IMG/VR virus record: IMGVR_UViG_3300046499_000172
Location: 1 to 21,073 of that record
Reading direction: 5' to 3' (one strand)
Origin: a virus
DNA length: 21,073 bases
Under the pieces are notes generated by a model. That model did no database searches, had not been told where the DNA came from, and saw only the letters and a program-made list of their open reading frames with translations. Positions 2,925 through 12,842 of the stretch are shown in pieces. Position 1 is the stretch's first letter. Each line of letters opens with the position of its first letter. The position numbers and the translations under genes were made by a program.

Positions 2925-3230
2925 ATGGCTGGAGGCTGGCAGGACTCGGACCGCAAGAGCCGGCTCCCGTCTGGGTGGGCGAAGATCCGCGCCGAGGTGC
3001 TCACGAGGGATCCGACGTGCCAGCTTTGCCACGTGCGCCCGAGCACGCACTGCGACCACATCGAGCCCAAGAAGGATGACCACCGTAAGGAGTCCCTTCG
3101 AGGCGTCTGTGAACCCTGCCACATGCAGCTCTCCTCGAAGCAGGGCAACGATGCGCAGCGTGAGAAGCCTCGCCCAACTCGTGCACGCCCTGCGGAGGTT
3201 CACCCAGGATTGCTGCCAGATGACCGGTAG
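2925..3230 (+). CDS. HNH endonuclease, small packaging-type
   Basis: The 101-residue protein is a compact HNH (beta-beta-alpha metal finger) nuclease. One zinc pair is Cys32/Cys35 (CQLC), the catalytic histidine lies in CDHIEP (Asp44, His45), and the second zinc pair with the final histidine is CEPCH (Cys62, Cys65, His66). The lead-in WAKIRAEVLTRDPTCQLC is typical of HNH proteins encoded beside phage terminases. In the HK97 group such proteins are known to be needed for terminase cutting during DNA packaging. Here the terminase genes lie about 2.5 kb downstream, so that role is likely but not certain. The last 25 residues are basic and Pro-rich. A free-standing homing nuclease is the alternative. 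Confidence 0.85.
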   Translation: MAGGWQDSDRKSRLPSGWAKIRAEVLTRDPTCQLCHVRPSTHCDHIEPKKDDHRKESLRGVCEPCHMQLSSKQGNDAQREKPRPTRARPAEVHPGLLPDDR

Positions 3231-4266: not shown

Positions 4267-4512
4267 GTGGCCAGCAAGGGACGAGGAACCGCAAGCCGAC
4301 GAGGCAACGCCGAGACGCTACGCAGATACTGGAGCAGCGGCGCCGGCGCGGCCAAGATCAGGTGGGGAACGCCAGGCGACTGGACCCGATGCAACCGCCA
4401 GCTCAGCAAGTACATGGGAGCCAGAGCCAAGGGCTACTGCCAGCTGCTGCACCGCCGCAACACAGGGGTCTACACCGGCAGCCGGCTCAACCCTGGTAGG
4501 CGGACGGGGTGA
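4267..4512 (+). CDS. conserved basic phage protein upstream of the packaging module
   Basis: The 81-residue product is basic and follows a pattern I have seen in many actinobacteriophages: an Arg/Gly/Asn-rich start (RGNAETLRRYW), then AAKIRWGTPGDWTRCNRQLSKYMGARAKGYC. It is usually annotated as hypothetical and found near the head or packaging genes. The small size, high charge and W-GTPGD core suggest nucleic-acid binding or a structural role, but that is inference. The GTG start at 4267 follows the previous stop closely (GAAGGAGTGAGCC). The overlapping frame beginning at 4257 is a shadow with low-complexity Arg/Gln content. It is the last gene before the long non-coding region. Confidence 0.75.
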   Translation: MASKGRGTASRRGNAETLRRYWSSGAGAAKIRWGTPGDWTRCNRQLSKYMGARAKGYCQLLHRRNTGVYTGSRLNPGRRTG

Positions 4513-4530
4513 CTACCCAGGAGGGCAGGG

Positions 4531-4560
4531 CCTACCCCATGGGCGTGGCTCACGGGTAGG
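4531..4560 (+). terminator. terminator-like hairpin after the early small-gene cluster
   Basis: CCTACCC (4531-4537) can pair with GGGTAGG (4554-4560) across a 16-base loop. It lies just after the stop of the 81-residue gene and no U tract follows, so it could be an actinobacterial I-shaped terminator or a 3'-end stabilising stem. A second, imperfect pairing is possible between CCTGGTAG (4492-4499) and CTACCCAGG (4513-4521). Confidence 0.4.
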
Positions 4561-4653
4561 CGTCGGCCGGCACGGCAGGCAGTAGGGCGAGGTAGGCCGA
4601 TGTGGTCATGGTCATGCTGTCGACTCGTCGATCTGAGTGATCATCGAAGGTTG

Positions 4654-4666
4654 ATCGAAGATCGAT
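4654..4666. repeat. short inverted repeat ATCGA-AGA-TCGAT
   Basis: A perfect five-base inverted repeat with a three-base centre lies at the left end of the GATC cluster. It overlaps two of the GATC words. By itself it could be chance; its interest comes from being one of several such symmetrical elements in the same 180 bp. Confidence 0.5.
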
Positions 4667-4673
4667 TGATGAA

Positions 4674-4693
4674 GATCCAAAAGTGTTTGGATC
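4674..4693. repeat. inverted repeat GATCCAAA-AGTG-TTTGGATC
   Basis: This is a perfect eight-base inverted repeat with a four-base centre. It could be a protein-binding palindrome on DNA or a short hairpin in RNA. It is followed within 10-30 bases by a weaker stem, CCAAGA (4703-4708) with TCTTGG (4718-4723). Confidence 0.75.
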
Positions 4694-4744
4694 AAGGTCG
4701 AACCAAGATCCATAAGGTCTTGGATTCCATGATCCAGAACCTGA

Positions 4745-4774
4745 GTTGATCATGGGGATTGGACCATGATCAAC
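4745..4774. repeat. 11-bp inverted repeat GTTGATCATGG / CCATGATCAAC
   Basis: Perfect 11-base arms (4745-4755 and 4764-4774) flank the eight-base centre GGATTGGA. This is the strongest symmetrical element of the GATC cluster. Each arm holds TGATCA or ATGATCA, itself palindromic. The arms are about 1.8 helical turns apart centre to centre, as expected for dimer or tetramer binding. No U tract follows, so a terminator role is unlikely. Confidence 0.8.
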
Positions 4775-4853
4775 CTGGGGGGAGACCCTTGATCCACTTT
4801 TCCTGGGGATCGGGGCCGTATAGCACCTGACCCCGTGTACGGGTTCCCAAGGC

Positions 4854-4934
4854 TCTGACCTGCGGGGATGCCGAGCTGGCCTGGCGGGCCTTCCCGCCTT
4901 CCTTCGTCTCGGATCGGTAACCATGCAGGTCAGA
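4854..4934. promoter_or_regulatory. long-range 10-bp inverted repeat, possible operator pair
   Basis: TCTGACCTGC (4854-4863) and GCAGGTCAGA (4925-4934) form a perfect ten-base inverted repeat separated by 61 bases. The right half ends 26 bases before the putative -10 box of the primase-polymerase gene, next to where the -35 box would be. This suggests two half-sites for a DNA-looping or dimeric regulator, or a long stem in RNA. Regulation is inferred from position only. Confidence 0.5.
4883..4898 (+). terminator. hairpin GGCGGG-CCTT-CCCGCC
   Basis: A perfect six-base GC stem with a CCTT loop is followed by a pyrimidine-rich stretch (TTCCTTCGTCTC). It lies between the halves of the 10-bp inverted repeat and upstream of the primase-polymerase promoter. 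It may end any transcript coming from the left, isolating the next operon. The tail is weakly U-rich, so confidence is moderate. Confidence 0.45.
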
Positions 4935-4960
4935 CTGCTGTAGCCGTTAACTCGGGCCGC

Positions 4961-4966
4961 TATCCT
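4961..4966 (+). promoter_or_regulatory. putative -10 box of a leaderless promoter (TATCCT)
   Basis: TATCCT lies six bases before the ATG at 4973 and fits the TANNNT -10 pattern of actinobacterial housekeeping promoters. Transcription would begin at or very near the A of the start codon, giving a leaderless messenger. There is no ribosome binding site upstream of this ATG, which supports that reading. No good -35 hexamer is visible at the expected 17-base spacing. Confidence 0.5.
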
Positions 4967-4972
4967 GGATGC

Positions 4973-5602
4973 ATGCCAGGGACGCTTCAGAGGTGCGAGC
5001 ACTGTGGGGGAGGGCTGCCGGTCGTGCACCGGTCGGACCGCCGCTACTGCTCGGACTCGCATCGCGTCCTCGCAGCTCGGGCCCGCAAGCGAGAGCGCGA
5101 CGCTGCTCTCGCCGCTGAGCAGCAGGCCCGCATTCCGGCCGAGTTGACCGCGCGTCCTCGCTGGGTGCGACACAAGGACAAGGTGCCGATGCGCACCGAC
5201 GGCCGCTTCGCCTCGGTGAACGACCCGTCGTCGTGGTCGGACTTCGCCGCCGCAACCTCGTCAAAGACGGGCGACGGTATCGGCTTCGTGCTCACGTCCG
5301 GCGACGGAGTTGTCGTCATCGACTTGGACCACGCGGTTGAGGCCGGCCGGGTCTTGCCGTGGGCGCAGGCGATTGTCGACCAGTTGCCGTCGACGTACAT
5401 GGAGCGTGGCCGGTCCGGTACCGGCCTGCACCTGTGGTTCCGCGGTGCGGTTCCCGCTGGTCGGCGCATCCGTAAGGGGGAGTTGGCGTTCGAGGTGTAC
5501 TCGGATCGCCGCTACATCATCGTCGGCGACCGGGTCCCCGGTACGCCGCTTGAGCTTGCCGAGCTGCCTGACGCAGCCGGCTTGGTTGCCTCGCTGACGT
5601 GA
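4973..5602 (+). CDS. zinc-finger plus minimal primase-polymerase (AEP) domain protein
   Basis: The 209-residue product begins with a small zinc-finger-like segment (CEHCG at 8-12, YCSDSH at 25-30) and a basic helix. It continues with an archaeo-eukaryotic primase fold of the phage Prim-Pol type: GIGFVLT (102-108), VIDLDHA with acidic Asp117 and Asp119, the SGTGLHLW histidine motif (148-155, His153), and FEVYSDRRYIIVGDR (173-187). The family makes primers or copies DNA. Full-length phage members usually carry a primase C-terminal or helicase domain that is absent here, so this is a minimal form. The ATG at 4973 is chosen over an open extension to 4868, because the family-like sequence begins there and a promoter sits just upstream. 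Its role next to the terminases is unclear. Confidence 0.78.
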   Translation: MPGTLQRCEHCGGGLPVVHRSDRRYCSDSHRVLAARARKRERDAALAAEQQARIPAELTARPRWVRHKDKVPMRTDGRFASVNDPSSWSDFAAATSSKTGDGIGFVLTSGDGVVVIDLDHAVEAGRVLPWAQAIVDQLPSTYMERGRSGTGLHLWFRGAVPAGRRIRKGELAFEVYSDRRYIIVGDRVPGTPLELAELPDAAGLVASLT

Positions 5603-5686: not shown

Positions 5687-6124
5687 ATGGGCGCACACGG
5701 ACCTATCCCGAAGCGTTCCGAGGAGCGCCGTCGCCGGAACAAGGATGACGGCCCTGAATTGATCCAGGCTCCGGCCGGGGGTCCTGAGGGTCTGCCCGAC
5801 CTGCCCGAGCCGGATCCGCTGTGGCATCCGATCGCTGTCGACTGGTACCTGAGCCTGCGAGAGTCCGGGCAGGCGGCCTTTTATGAGCCGTCGGACTGGG
5901 CGGTTGCCCGGTACGCCGCAGATCTTATGTCGAAGGTGTTGATGTCGGAGCGCGGCCCGAATGGTCAGCTGGTGGCCGCACTGAACTCGGTGATGGCGTC
6001 GCTGCTGACGACCGAGGGCGACCGTCGCCGGGCTCGCATGGAACTGGAGCGAAAGCCGGCCGGTAGGCAGGCGCCAGCTTCCGTGACGGCCATCGCCGAC
6101 TATCGCTCGTCGATCGGTGGCTGA
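5687..6124 (+). CDS. terS: terminase small subunit
   Basis: This 145-residue protein starts MGAHGPIPKRSEERRRRNKDDG, the basic opening common to small terminases of actinobacterial HK97-type phages. A mostly helical core follows (WYLSLRESGQAAFYEPSDWAVARYAADLMSKVL, then LNSVMASLLTTEGDRRRARMELER). Small terminases form rings that recognise the packaging site and stimulate the large subunit. The ATG at 5687 has GGAGG at 5677-5681. Its last eight bases overlap the GTG of the large terminase, as is usual for this pair. The candidate DNA target would be the repeat block at 4621-4820, about 0.9 kb upstream, but this is inference. Confidence 0.85.
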   Translation: MGAHGPIPKRSEERRRRNKDDGPELIQAPAGGPEGLPDLPEPDPLWHPIAVDWYLSLRESGQAAFYEPSDWAVARYAADLMSKVLMSERGPNGQLVAALNSVMASLLTTEGDRRRARMELERKPAGRQAPASVTAIADYRSSIGG

Positions 6125-7859
6125 CGAGGGAGTCCCCGTCGTCGTCGAACCCTTCACGCTCGGCCCCACATGGAAGCGCGGCCCGGACGGCAAGTTCCTG
6201 CTGCCCGAGTACACGCTGGGCTGGCATGCCCTGGCTTGGACGGCGACGTACCTGCAGCACTACGCCGGGAAGCCGTGGCGGTATACGCCCGAGCAGGCCC
6301 GGCTGACGCTGTGGTGGTACGCCATGGATCCGGTGACGAATCGGTTCCTGTGGCGTGACGGGGTGGTCCAACGGCTGAAGGGTTGGGGCAAGGACCCGGT
6401 CGTGGCATCGTGGGGCGCGTTTGAGTTTGTCGGGCCGTGCCGGTTCGAAAAGGTCGCAGACGAGGGCAATGAGTGGGATGTGCCGCCGGGGCAGCCGTTG
6501 GGCGTGCAGCATCCGGCGGCCTGGGTACAGATGGCGGCGGTGTCGCAGGATCAGACCCGCAACACGATGACGATCTTCCCGGGCTTGTTGTCGAAGCGGG
6601 CGATCCAGGAGTACCGGATCGACCTCGGCAAGGAGATCATCTACGCCGACAAGGGGCGGGCCCGCATTGAGGCCGTGACCTCTTCGCCGCGCGCTCTCGA
6701 AGGCGGGCGCCCGACGGCCACCTACCCCAACGAGACCCATCACTGGGTGGAGTCGAACTCGGGCCACGACATGGCGGCCGTGATCGAGCGCAACGCCACC
6801 AAGTCAGCAGACGGAGCGAGCCGCACTCTGGCCATCACGAACGCGTTCGAGCCTGGCGAGGACTCGGTGGCAGAGCGAACCCGGGATGCATACGAGGCCG
6901 CAGAGGCCGGCCGTGCCGCCGACACGGGCTTGTTCTACGACACCCTGGAGGCTCCGCCGGAGGCGAAGCTGACGGAAGCGTGGATCGAGCCGACTCTGCG
7001 CGCCGTGCGTGGGGATTCGACATGGCTGGACATCGGCCGACTGAAGGCGTCGATCTTGGACGTCCGCAATCCGCCGAGCCGGTCCCGGCGCTTCTGGTAC
7101 AACCAGATCGCTGCGGCCGAGGATGCGTGGATGGCCCGCTATGAGTGGGACGCCTGTAAGCGCGAGGATCTGGCACTCGCCGACGGCGACGAGGTCGTCA
7201 TGTTCTTCGACGGATCCAAGTCGGACGACGCGACGGGCCTTGCAGCCTGCCGCATGTCGGACGGGCTGGTCTCCGCGCTCGGCGTGTGGCAGAAGCCGGC
7301 GAACTGGCCTTCGCCGAACACGCCCGGGTTCGTGCCCTATCGGGTTCCTCGCGACGAGGTCCACGGCGTCGTTGAGAGCGCCTTCACCCGGTTCAAGGTG
7401 CTGGCGTTCTTCGCGGACCCAGGGTCGGGCCAGGACGATGACGACGGCGAGATGTACTGGGACGCCTACATCGACGTGTGGGGTCAGACGTGGGGCGCCA
7501 AGCTGGCGATGCGGTCCGTGTTGTCGGGCCCGAAGGCTCACGCTGTCCGCTGGGACATGCGCGATCCCCGCAATCAGGAGACGTTCACGGAGGCTGTGAA
7601 GCGGACTCACGCAGACGCGCTGGAGCGGACGCTCATCCACGACGGCCACAAGGTGCTGCGCACTCATGTGATCAATGCCCGGCGGCGGACGAATCGGTGG
7701 GGCATCACAATCGGCAAGGAGCACCGTGAATCTGCACGGAAGATCGACTTGGCGGTGTGCATGGTCGGGTCCCGAATGCTGCGCCGCATGATCCTCAACT
7801 CGCCGAAGCGGGCCAAGAAGAAGAGTCCAGGCAAGGGGAGGGTGGTGGTGCTGCGGTGA
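6117..7859 (+). CDS. terL: terminase large subunit
   Basis: The 580-residue protein is the ATP-driven motor and headful or cos nuclease of packaging. An unusual Walker A-like motif, VVQRLKGWGKDP, is at 83-94. A putative Walker B and coupling region, PNETHHW, is near 204-210 (Glu206). The RNase H-type nuclease part has acidic residues in FFDGSKSDDATGL (Asp365) and FADPGSGQDDDDGE, and a last one in KIDLAVC (Asp544). Length and order match the family used by Streptomyces and mycobacterial siphophages. It starts at the GTG at 6117, overlapping the small subunit by eight bases, and ends in a basic tail (KRAKKKSPGKGR). Its TGA overlaps the portal start by four bases (GTGA). Confidence 0.93.
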   Translation: MADEGVPVVVEPFTLGPTWKRGPDGKFLLPEYTLGWHALAWTATYLQHYAGKPWRYTPEQARLTLWWYAMDPVTNRFLWRDGVVQRLKGWGKDPVVASWGAFEFVGPCRFEKVADEGNEWDVPPGQPLGVQHPAAWVQMAAVSQDQTRNTMTIFPGLLSKRAIQEYRIDLGKEIIYADKGRARIEAVTSSPRALEGGRPTATYPNETHHWVESNSGHDMAAVIERNATKSADGASRTLAITNAFEPGEDSVAERTRDAYEAAEAGRAADTGLFYDTLEAPPEAKLTEAWIEPTLRAVRGDSTWLDIGRLKASILDVRNPPSRSRRFWYNQIAAAEDAWMARYEWDACKREDLALADGDEVVMFFDGSKSDDATGLAACRMSDGLVSALGVWQKPANWPSPNTPGFVPYRVPRDEVHGVVESAFTRFKVLAFFADPGSGQDDDDGEMYWDAYIDVWGQTWGAKLAMRSVLSGPKAHAVRWDMRDPRNQETFTEAVKRTHADALERTLIHDGHKVLRTHVINARRRTNRWGITIGKEHRESARKIDLAVCMVGSRMLRRMILNSPKRAKKKSPGKGRVVVLR

Positions 7860-11808: not shown

Positions 11809-12842
11809 TGGTGAGGGCTGTCCCGGCTTCCGCGCCGGGCGGGGCAGCCAGGCCGCTGTCCATCGTCGCCCGCGTGCACGCGATGCCGCCGGAGCACAAT
11901 GCGGGCGCCGAGCACATGCTGGTGTCGATGCTGCGGCCTCTGGTGGAGCGCGGGCACGATGTGTCCGTGTGGCTGTCCCGGTACGGCAAGGCCCACGAGA
12001 TCTACGACTACCGGGGCATCAAGGTGGTGCCGCTGGAGGCCCGCCTGGACTTCCAGACGGCCGTCAAGCGGGCTCACGTCCTGCTGGCCCATCTGGAGAC
12101 GGTGCCTTCGACGGCGTCGATGGCCCGCGGGTACGGCAAGCCGCTGGTCGTGGTCTGTCACAACACGCACCGACCGACCTTCCGGGATGCTGCGGCGGGC
12201 GGGACCGCTCTGGCGGTCTACAACAGCCAGTGGATGCAGGTCGAGGCGGAGCTGTTCTTCGCCGAGTACCCGAAGTCCGTCCGGCCCGAGTCGTCGCTGA
12301 TCGTCCGTCCGCCGGTGTTCGCCGACGAGTATGCGACGAAGCCCGGCAACGCCATCACGCTGGTCAACTGCAACCCGGAGAAGGGCGGCAAGGTCCTCGA
12401 GGCCCTGGCCCGCCGCATGCCGGACCAGCAGTTCCTTGCCGTGAAGGGCGCCTACGGTGAGCAGATCCTTCCCGACCTGCCCAACGTCGAGGTCGTCGAG
12501 CACGTCCGCGGCGAGGACATGCGGGAGAAGGTGTACGCCCGCACCCGCGTCCTGCTGATGCCGTCGTCCTACGAATCGTGGGGCCGGGCGGGCTGCGAGG
12601 CCCTGGCAAGCGGCATCCCTGTCGTTGCGCACCCCACCCCGGGGCTGTGCGAGAGCTTGGGCGAGGCCGGGATCTTCGTGGACCGCGCCGACCTGGACGG
12701 CTACGAGGCCGTGTTGCGGAAGCTGCAAACCGTGGCCGAGTACCGGCTGGCCAGCAAGCGGGCCAAGGCCCGTTCTGCCGAACTCGATCCTTCTGCCGAT
12801 CTGGCTGCCTGGTGCAGCGCCGTCGAGGACCTGGCCCGATAG
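11808..12842 (+). CDS. GT-B (GT4-like) glycosyltransferase in the capsid operon
   Basis: The 344-residue enzyme has two Rossmann-like halves. The N-terminal acceptor half includes NAGAEHMLVSMLRPLVERGHDV (31-52). The C-terminal donor half includes VNCNPEKGG (186-194) and the hallmark E-x7-E site ESWGRAGCE (Glu256, Glu264), followed by GIPVVAHPTPGLCESLGEAGIFV. GT4 enzymes are retaining transferases using nucleotide sugars. Its ATG overlaps the stop of the major capsid gene, and the connector genes follow it. Phage-encoded transferases next to capsid and tail genes are known to glycosylate virion proteins in mycobacteriophages, so the capsid is the likely acceptor. No membrane segment is present. 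GTG at 11811 is an alternative start. Confidence 0.88.
   Translation: MVRAVPASAPGGAARPLSIVARVHAMPPEHNAGAEHMLVSMLRPLVERGHDVSVWLSRYGKAHEIYDYRGIKVVPLEARLDFQTAVKRAHVLLAHLETVPSTASMARGYGKPLVVVCHNTHRPTFRDAAAGGTALAVYNSQWMQVEAELFFAEYPKSVRPESSLIVRPPVFADEYATKPGNAITLVNCNPEKGGKVLEALARRMPDQQFLAVKGAYGEQILPDLPNVEVVEHVRGEDMREKVYARTRVLLMPSSYESWGRAGCEALASGIPVVAHPTPGLCESLGEAGIFVDRADLDGYEAVLRKLQTVAEYRLASKRAKARSAELDPSADLAAWCSAVEDLAR

What the first reader, a model, noticed from the sequence alone, without database searches (positions are those of the whole stretch)
4630..4811. Twelve GATC words and nested inverted repeats in a lone non-coding, A+T-rich block
Twelve GATC tetranucleotides occur within 182 bp, where fewer than one is expected. 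They are often embedded in TTGATC, GATCAA or AAGATC, and at least three perfect inverted repeats (arms of 5, 8 and 11 bases) are included. The 120 bases 4621-4740 are about 44% G+C, against much higher in the genes. The block sits between the small-gene cluster and the primase-polymerase and terminase genes. This is not a standard annotated element. It could be the packaging recognition site (cos/pac) bound by the small terminase, a replication origin served by the adjacent Prim-Pol protein, or an operator array. Inference: the repeated symmetric words point to an oligomeric DNA-binding protein.
Basis: partly seen in the sequence, partly recalled or inferred. Interest (0 to 1): 0.78.

Follow-up and report, generated by a model that had tools for sequence, protein, structure and literature searches.

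The report
GATC-word array beside a phage cos site
The cluster of GATC words is a conserved roughly 190-base element that ends exactly at the cutting point (cos) where this family of Streptomyces phages trims its DNA for packaging, and it stays the same when the packaging enzyme beside it is swapped, so it is probably an extra packaging or genome-end signal rather than the enzyme's own binding site.

Summary
In detail: 12 GATC in 182 bp, the densest window in the contig, with inverted repeats beyond what the GATC words alone give. The block ends at a cos cleavage site. Ten related contigs begin at one and the same nucleotide (window 4822), 14 nt before a CGGGT box. The sequenced genomes of Samy, Attoomi, Juicebox and Krakatau start at that same offset. 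In 64 non-redundant relatives GATC is about 7-fold denser and TGATCA about 27-fold denser at -200..-13 from the cut than on either side.

In HK97 that site lies at +15..+29. Here an invariant box sits at exactly +15 and changes with the terminase type, while the array and left half of the cut site stay constant across at least three terminase types. The array is also independent of Prim-Pol.

Best reading: an accessory element on the genome end opposite the terminase genes, read by an unidentified protein. Its word recalls the TGATC(A/G) array of P1 pac, without a Dam gene. No binding was tested, and a few phages with an intact cos lack the array.

The parts
4630..4811 (.). GATC/TGATCA array: 12 GATC words, -192 to -11 from the cut; right end of the linear virion genome
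4745..4774 (.). perfect inverted repeat GTTGATCATGG-8-CCATGATCAAC inside the array
4674..4693 (.). perfect inverted repeat GATCCAAA-4-TTTGGATC inside the array
4777..4788 (.). conserved G-run/C-run hairpin (GGGGGGAGACCC), -45 to -34; GGGG and CC near invariant in 64 relatives
   Evidence: column conservation
4808..4811 (.). GATC at fixed position -14 (47 of 64 relatives), abutting the overhang; partly favoured by how the set was chosen
4811..4821 (+). cosN: inferred 11-nt 3' overhang CGGGGCCGTAT (length by analogy with Samy, not measured)
4822..4835 (+). left end of the packaged genome (+1 = 4822), AGCACCTGACCCCG
   Evidence: 10 related contigs start exactly here; Samy, Attoomi, Juicebox, Krakatau genome starts at the same offset
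4836..4850 (+). probable small-terminase site (+15 to +29) TGTACGGGTTCCCAA; CGGGT invariant in 64 relatives (part of how they were found)
   Evidence: HK97 site at +15..+29 (PMC11331095); co-variation with TerS type
4854..4934 (.). imperfect inverted repeat (21-nt arms, 81%) with TGACCTGC/GCAGGTCA, upstream of Prim-Pol; role unknown
4973..5602 (+). Prim-Pol, first gene of the left end
5687..6124 (+). small terminase TerS (PF25673)
6117..7859 (+). large terminase TerL (phrog_9)
2925..3230 (+). HNH endonuclease (phrog_333), right-end packaging-type nuclease, present near cos in nearly all relatives
4267..4512 (+). 81-aa protein (phrog_6439, unknown function; 'p81'), last gene before the array; presence correlates with array size

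Best explanation
The block is the left half of a cos packaging site. cosN (cut at 4821/4822, overhang about 4811-4821) is flanked on the right by the probable small-terminase box (+15) and on the left by the GATC array. The array is an accessory element of about 190 bp on the genome end opposite the terminase genes. It is read by a sequence-specific, probably dimeric or oligomeric protein other than the small terminase (a phage right-end protein or a host protein) that helps TerL and the HNH nuclease place or complete the cut, or marks that end. Shown: position, conservation, and independence from the terminase and Prim-Pol lineages. Inferred: that a protein binds it and that it acts in packaging.
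For: Ten contigs start at exactly +1 while other starts are scattered. The same 14-nt offset is found at genome starts of Samy (cos CGTTAAGGTGC predicted from terminal read coverage, PMC11302927), Attoomi, Juicebox and Krakatau. In 64 non-redundant cos regions GATC per 50 bp is 1.4-2.1 at -200..0 against 0.05-0.37 at -600..-200 and 0.09-0.31 at +1..+200; TGATCA is 9.06/kb against 0.33 and 0.35. In Samy the terminal 250 bp reaches the genome-wide maximum of GATC (6). The array and left cosN persist when TerS/TerL are exchanged, and the +15 box changes with them. The array is present with or without Prim-Pol.
Against: No binding, footprint or deletion data. Array size ranges from 0 to 14; L330 has cosN and the +15 box with no GATC within 200 bp. 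Plasmids pWTY27 and pSM17B carry cos-like sites without a left-side array. Related cos phages of Gordonia, Mycobacterium and Corynebacterium, and Streptomyces phage phiC31, lack it. No contig was found that ends exactly at the predicted right end.
Confidence: 0.6

Rival explanations
1. The array is the small-terminase binding site itself, the first reader's packaging option: TerS oligomers assemble on GATC words.
For: Adjacent to cosN and conserved with it; P1 pac offers a GATC-word precedent (PMC10028697); TerS identity to the window correlates weakly with array size (rho 0.31, p 0.007).
Against: HK97 TerS binds +15..+29; here a conserved box sits there and co-varies with TerS type while the array does not; cos phages with the same TerS family lack arrays.
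Confidence: 0.12
2. The array belongs to the genome end that leaves the capsid first: bound on entry by a delivered or host protein, it protects the end, aids circularisation or starts DNA uptake.
For: It lies at the end opposite the terminase genes, which by analogy with other cos phages is packaged last and ejected first; it is terminase-independent; the neighbouring p81 family occurs within MuF/capsid-protease genes in other phages and its presence tracks array size (p 0.0004).
Against: Packaging direction was not tested here; p81 homologues outside this lineage have no GATC array; no delivery data.
Confidence: 0.2
3. It is a replication origin (iteron-like) used in lytic growth.
For: A+T-richer repeats; GC skew changes sign at this place in 7 of 7 records; a Prim-Pol gene is adjacent in some.
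Against: Independent of Prim-Pol; the skew flip is equally expected at the junction of the two genome ends; the array keeps fixed register to cosN; no initiator gene identified.
Confidence: 0.08
4. It is an operator array for a phage or host regulator of late genes.
For: Palindromic words upstream of the first late gene; clusters of a related but different word CTGATCAG occur at a second locus in four relatives.
Against: Locked to cosN, not to the promoter or first gene, which differ; CTGATCAG makes up 1 of 392 array words.
Confidence: 0.06

Closest known systems
Bacteriophage P1 pac site (PacA/PacB)
   Same: Short packaging site dense in TGATC(A/G) words: seven in 161 bp in P1 (PMC10028697), 12 GATC in 182 bp here, with TGATCA the commonest hexamer in relatives.
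   Different: P1 is a headful pac phage and its words are Dam-methylation sites inside pacA. Here the site is cos-type, no Dam-family gene was found in 26 related records, and the words lie on one side of the cut in this group.
HK97 cos region and small terminase
   Same: cos cut with a 3' overhang, TerS site at +15..+29, HNH endonuclease as packaging partner (PMC11331095, PMC9410871).
   Different: No GATC array came up in the passages read; TerS here (PF25673) shows no significant sequence or fold match to HK97 TerS.
Phage lambda cosQ-cosN-cosB
   Same: An accessory element lies on the far side of cosN from the terminase-binding site, as cosQ does (general knowledge).
   Different: cosQ is one short sequence; this is an array of about 190 bp.
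Streptomyces phage Samy cos
   Same: cos predicted from reads, with the same 14-nt offset to TGTACGGGT and a GATC-dense terminal 250 bp.
   Different: Different overhang and terminase; fewer words, mostly inside a coding sequence.

Membership tests
cos packaging site (HK97-like) | Unique genome end at a fixed nucleotide | tested here: met
   10 contigs start at the same nucleotide; four isolated phages' genome starts at the same offset; not measured on this phage
cos packaging site (HK97-like) | TerS site at +15..+29 | tested here: inconclusive
   Conserved box at exactly +15, co-varying with TerS type; no binding assay
cos packaging site (HK97-like) | 3' overhang of 10-12 nt | tested here: inconclusive
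   Contig starts and Samy fit a trimmed 3' overhang of 11 nt; no contig ending at the right end found
cos packaging site (HK97-like) | HNH endonuclease gene linked to the cos/terminase region | tested here: met
   Window 2925-3230 and 40 of 42 relatives with enough upstream sequence
P1-type pac | TGATC(A/G) hexamers clustered at the packaging cut | tested here: met
P1-type pac | Dam methylation of the words, phage Dam gene | tested here: not met
   0 of 26 related records have PF02086; PF01555 over its cut-off in 3; methylation by the host not testable
P1-type pac | Headful packaging from one cut | tested here: not met
   Fixed left ends in many contigs
Prim-Pol replication origin | Array present only with its initiator | tested here: not met
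   Mean 6.4 GATC in 33 relatives without Prim-Pol, 7.4 in 29 with it

The most novel reading that the evidence does not exclude
A terminase-independent cis-element of repeated TGATCA-type words on the right genome end of Streptomyces cos phages, bound by a so far unknown phage or host protein. It would be a separate functional layer of cos sites that stays behind when terminase modules are swapped at cosN.
Probability: 0.45. Interest if true: 0.72.

Novelty: new variant of a known kind. Interest (0 to 1): 0.62.

Why it matters
It would add a component to the textbook cos site, one that does not belong to the terminase, and makes a testable case of convergence with P1 pac. The natural swaps at cosN separate which DNA each packaging protein is likely to read, without any mutant having been made. 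It also gives a way to predict genome ends of Streptomyces prophages from sequence alone, and to spot plasmids that have taken up cos sites.

Tried and rejected
p81 as the GATC binder: its presence correlates with array size in the lineage (p 0.0004), but homologues in 44-52% G+C contigs and in Gordonia and Mycobacterium phages have no array, so shared descent is a sufficient explanation. HNH as binder: identity does not correlate with array size (rho 0.15, p 0.25), and divergent HNH alleles (L088, L212) go with large arrays. Attachment site: the cos lies inside the related prophage records, not at their edge. Structured RNA: no Rfam match. Dam methylation: no PF02086. Helical phasing of words: no clear 10.5-bp period. 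TerS model (pLDDT 72) gave no significant fold match; HK97 TerS appears only at E 2.4. Led nowhere: one locus search in the wrong frame and an unspecific pattern for right ends. Paper searches for GATC with Streptomyces cos sites found no earlier description in the held library, which misses most subscription journals.

Full report
What is there. The window is a 21-kb virus record of a Streptomyces siphophage type: HNH nuclease (2925-3230), an endonuclease VII-like gene, small genes up to 4512, a non-coding stretch, Prim-Pol, TerS, TerL, portal, capsid. The Prim-Pol gene most likely starts at 4973, not 4868, because relatives align from about there, so the non-coding stretch is about 4513-4972. 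The twelve GATC words, the low G+C and the inverted repeats are as described. In 2000 dinucleotide shuffles of the non-coding stretch none reached the observed count. The inverted repeats exceed what fixed GATC positions give, both here and over 64 relatives (79 against 36 with s.d. 7).

It ends at a cos site. Relatives were fetched by TerS and Prim-Pol. Eight contigs of the group (L002, L011, L014, L027, L043, L046, L048, L049) begin with the same base of AGCACCTG, and two distant ones (L070, L071) begin at the same offset, 14 nt before TGTACGGGT; other starts are scattered. The isolated phages Samy, Attoomi, Juicebox and Krakatau start their deposited genomes at that same offset. For Samy the cos sequence CGTTAAGGTGC (11 nt) was predicted from read coverage at the termini (PMC11302927). 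By this register the left genome end in the window is 4822 and the overhang is about 4811-4821. The end of this particular phage was not measured, and I found no contig that stops exactly at the right end, so the overhang length is inferred.

The array is locked to the cut. In 64 non-redundant cos regions GATC runs at 1.4-2.1 per 50 bp from -200 to the cut, and at 0.05-0.37 to the left and 0.09-0.31 in the first 200 bp to the right. TGATCA is about 27 times denser than in the flanks, and GATC is the most over-represented tetranucleotide (9.3-fold). The set was chosen by resemblance to a cosN reference that includes GATC at -14 and by a CGGGT/CGGAT-type box, so that one word and the box are partly selected; the counts from -200 to -13 exclude the selected word. 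Relatedness among the 64 is reduced, not removed. Eleven Streptomyces genome loci and one of Wenjunlia carry the cosN core; most have several GATC words, three have none or one.

It is probably not the terminase site. HK97 TerS needs only +15 to +29 (PMC11331095). Here the best conserved block to the right of the cut, CGGGT, is at +19..+23. Natural exchanges separate the parts. L276, L329, L292 and L261 keep the array, the left half of cosN and, where the locus reaches far enough upstream, the HNH gene, but their terminases are only about 30-35% identical. L257, L290, L321 and L439 keep the left half and 3-11 GATC words and carry TGCGTGCG at exactly +15; their TerS did not match the two known types. 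So the +15 box follows the terminase and the array does not. Nor does it follow Prim-Pol.

How it may work. A symmetric word repeated over 190 bp suggests several dimers or an oligomer. The closest word-level precedent is P1 pac with its TGATC(A/G) repeats (PMC10028697), but the methylation that governs P1 pac is not supported here. The array lies at the genome end opposite the terminase genes; if packaging runs from the terminase end, as in other cos phages, that end is packaged last and ejected first. I therefore favour an accessory packaging element acting at the terminal cut, and keep an end-protection or entry role as the main rival. The binder is unknown. The last gene before the array, p81, tracks array size within the lineage, but its relatives elsewhere have no arrays, so this is only a lead.

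Limits. Every functional statement is inference. Array-free cos sites exist in prophages and on plasmids, so the element is not indispensable everywhere.

Noticed in passing
L489 (plasmid pWTY27, NC_013667.2) 12183-12330: A conjugative Streptomyces plasmid with a phage capsid gene carries two tandem cos-like sites of two different phage groups just after that gene. Its 2012 description noted the capsid gene; the passages I saw of it mention no packaging site. It looks like a plasmid that could be packaged by helper phages.
   Followed up: partly
L492 (pSM17B) about 5040-5075; L493 (S. decoyicus plasmid) about 500-635: Two more plasmids with primase/Prim-Pol genes carry cos-like sites of the second group; the S. 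decoyicus one also has a phiSASD1-like site in tandem.
   Followed up: partly
L490 (NZ_CP108705.1) and L491 (NZ_CP109578.1): 88-kb and 92-kb Streptomyces plasmids with this cos, several GATC words and an HNH gene beside it (terminase and portal genes in the first): likely phage-plasmids.
   Followed up: no
L141, L145, L163, L178, L180: A second phage group has a different cut site (ggaccgccggggagg) but the same ACCTGGGGGGNNACC hairpin and GATC words, in several on both sides of the cut.
   Followed up: partly
G003, G009, G011, G019, 5.8-17 kb left of cos: A second repeat locus of CTGATCAG/CTGCTCAG words, with spacing conserved in three of the four, directly after a large unidentified ORF of about 690-750 aa; the word is nearly absent from the cos array.
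   Followed up: partly
L087, L089, L079 and seven others, +58 from cos: GGTCTAGNCCA, resembling a DasR-type operator (from memory), in 10 of 64 relatives.
   Followed up: no
L259, L260, L273, L309, L310, L322, L324: p81-bearing contigs of 45-52% G+C with no GATC at all in about 5 kb, which suggests strong GATC avoidance.
   Followed up: no
window 4822 and six relatives: GC skew changes from negative to positive around the cos site in all seven records examined.
   Followed up: partly
L061 1-48: The contig start holds a transposase-adaptor-like sequence fused to phage DNA a few bases after the cos end: probably a library or assembly artefact.
   Followed up: no
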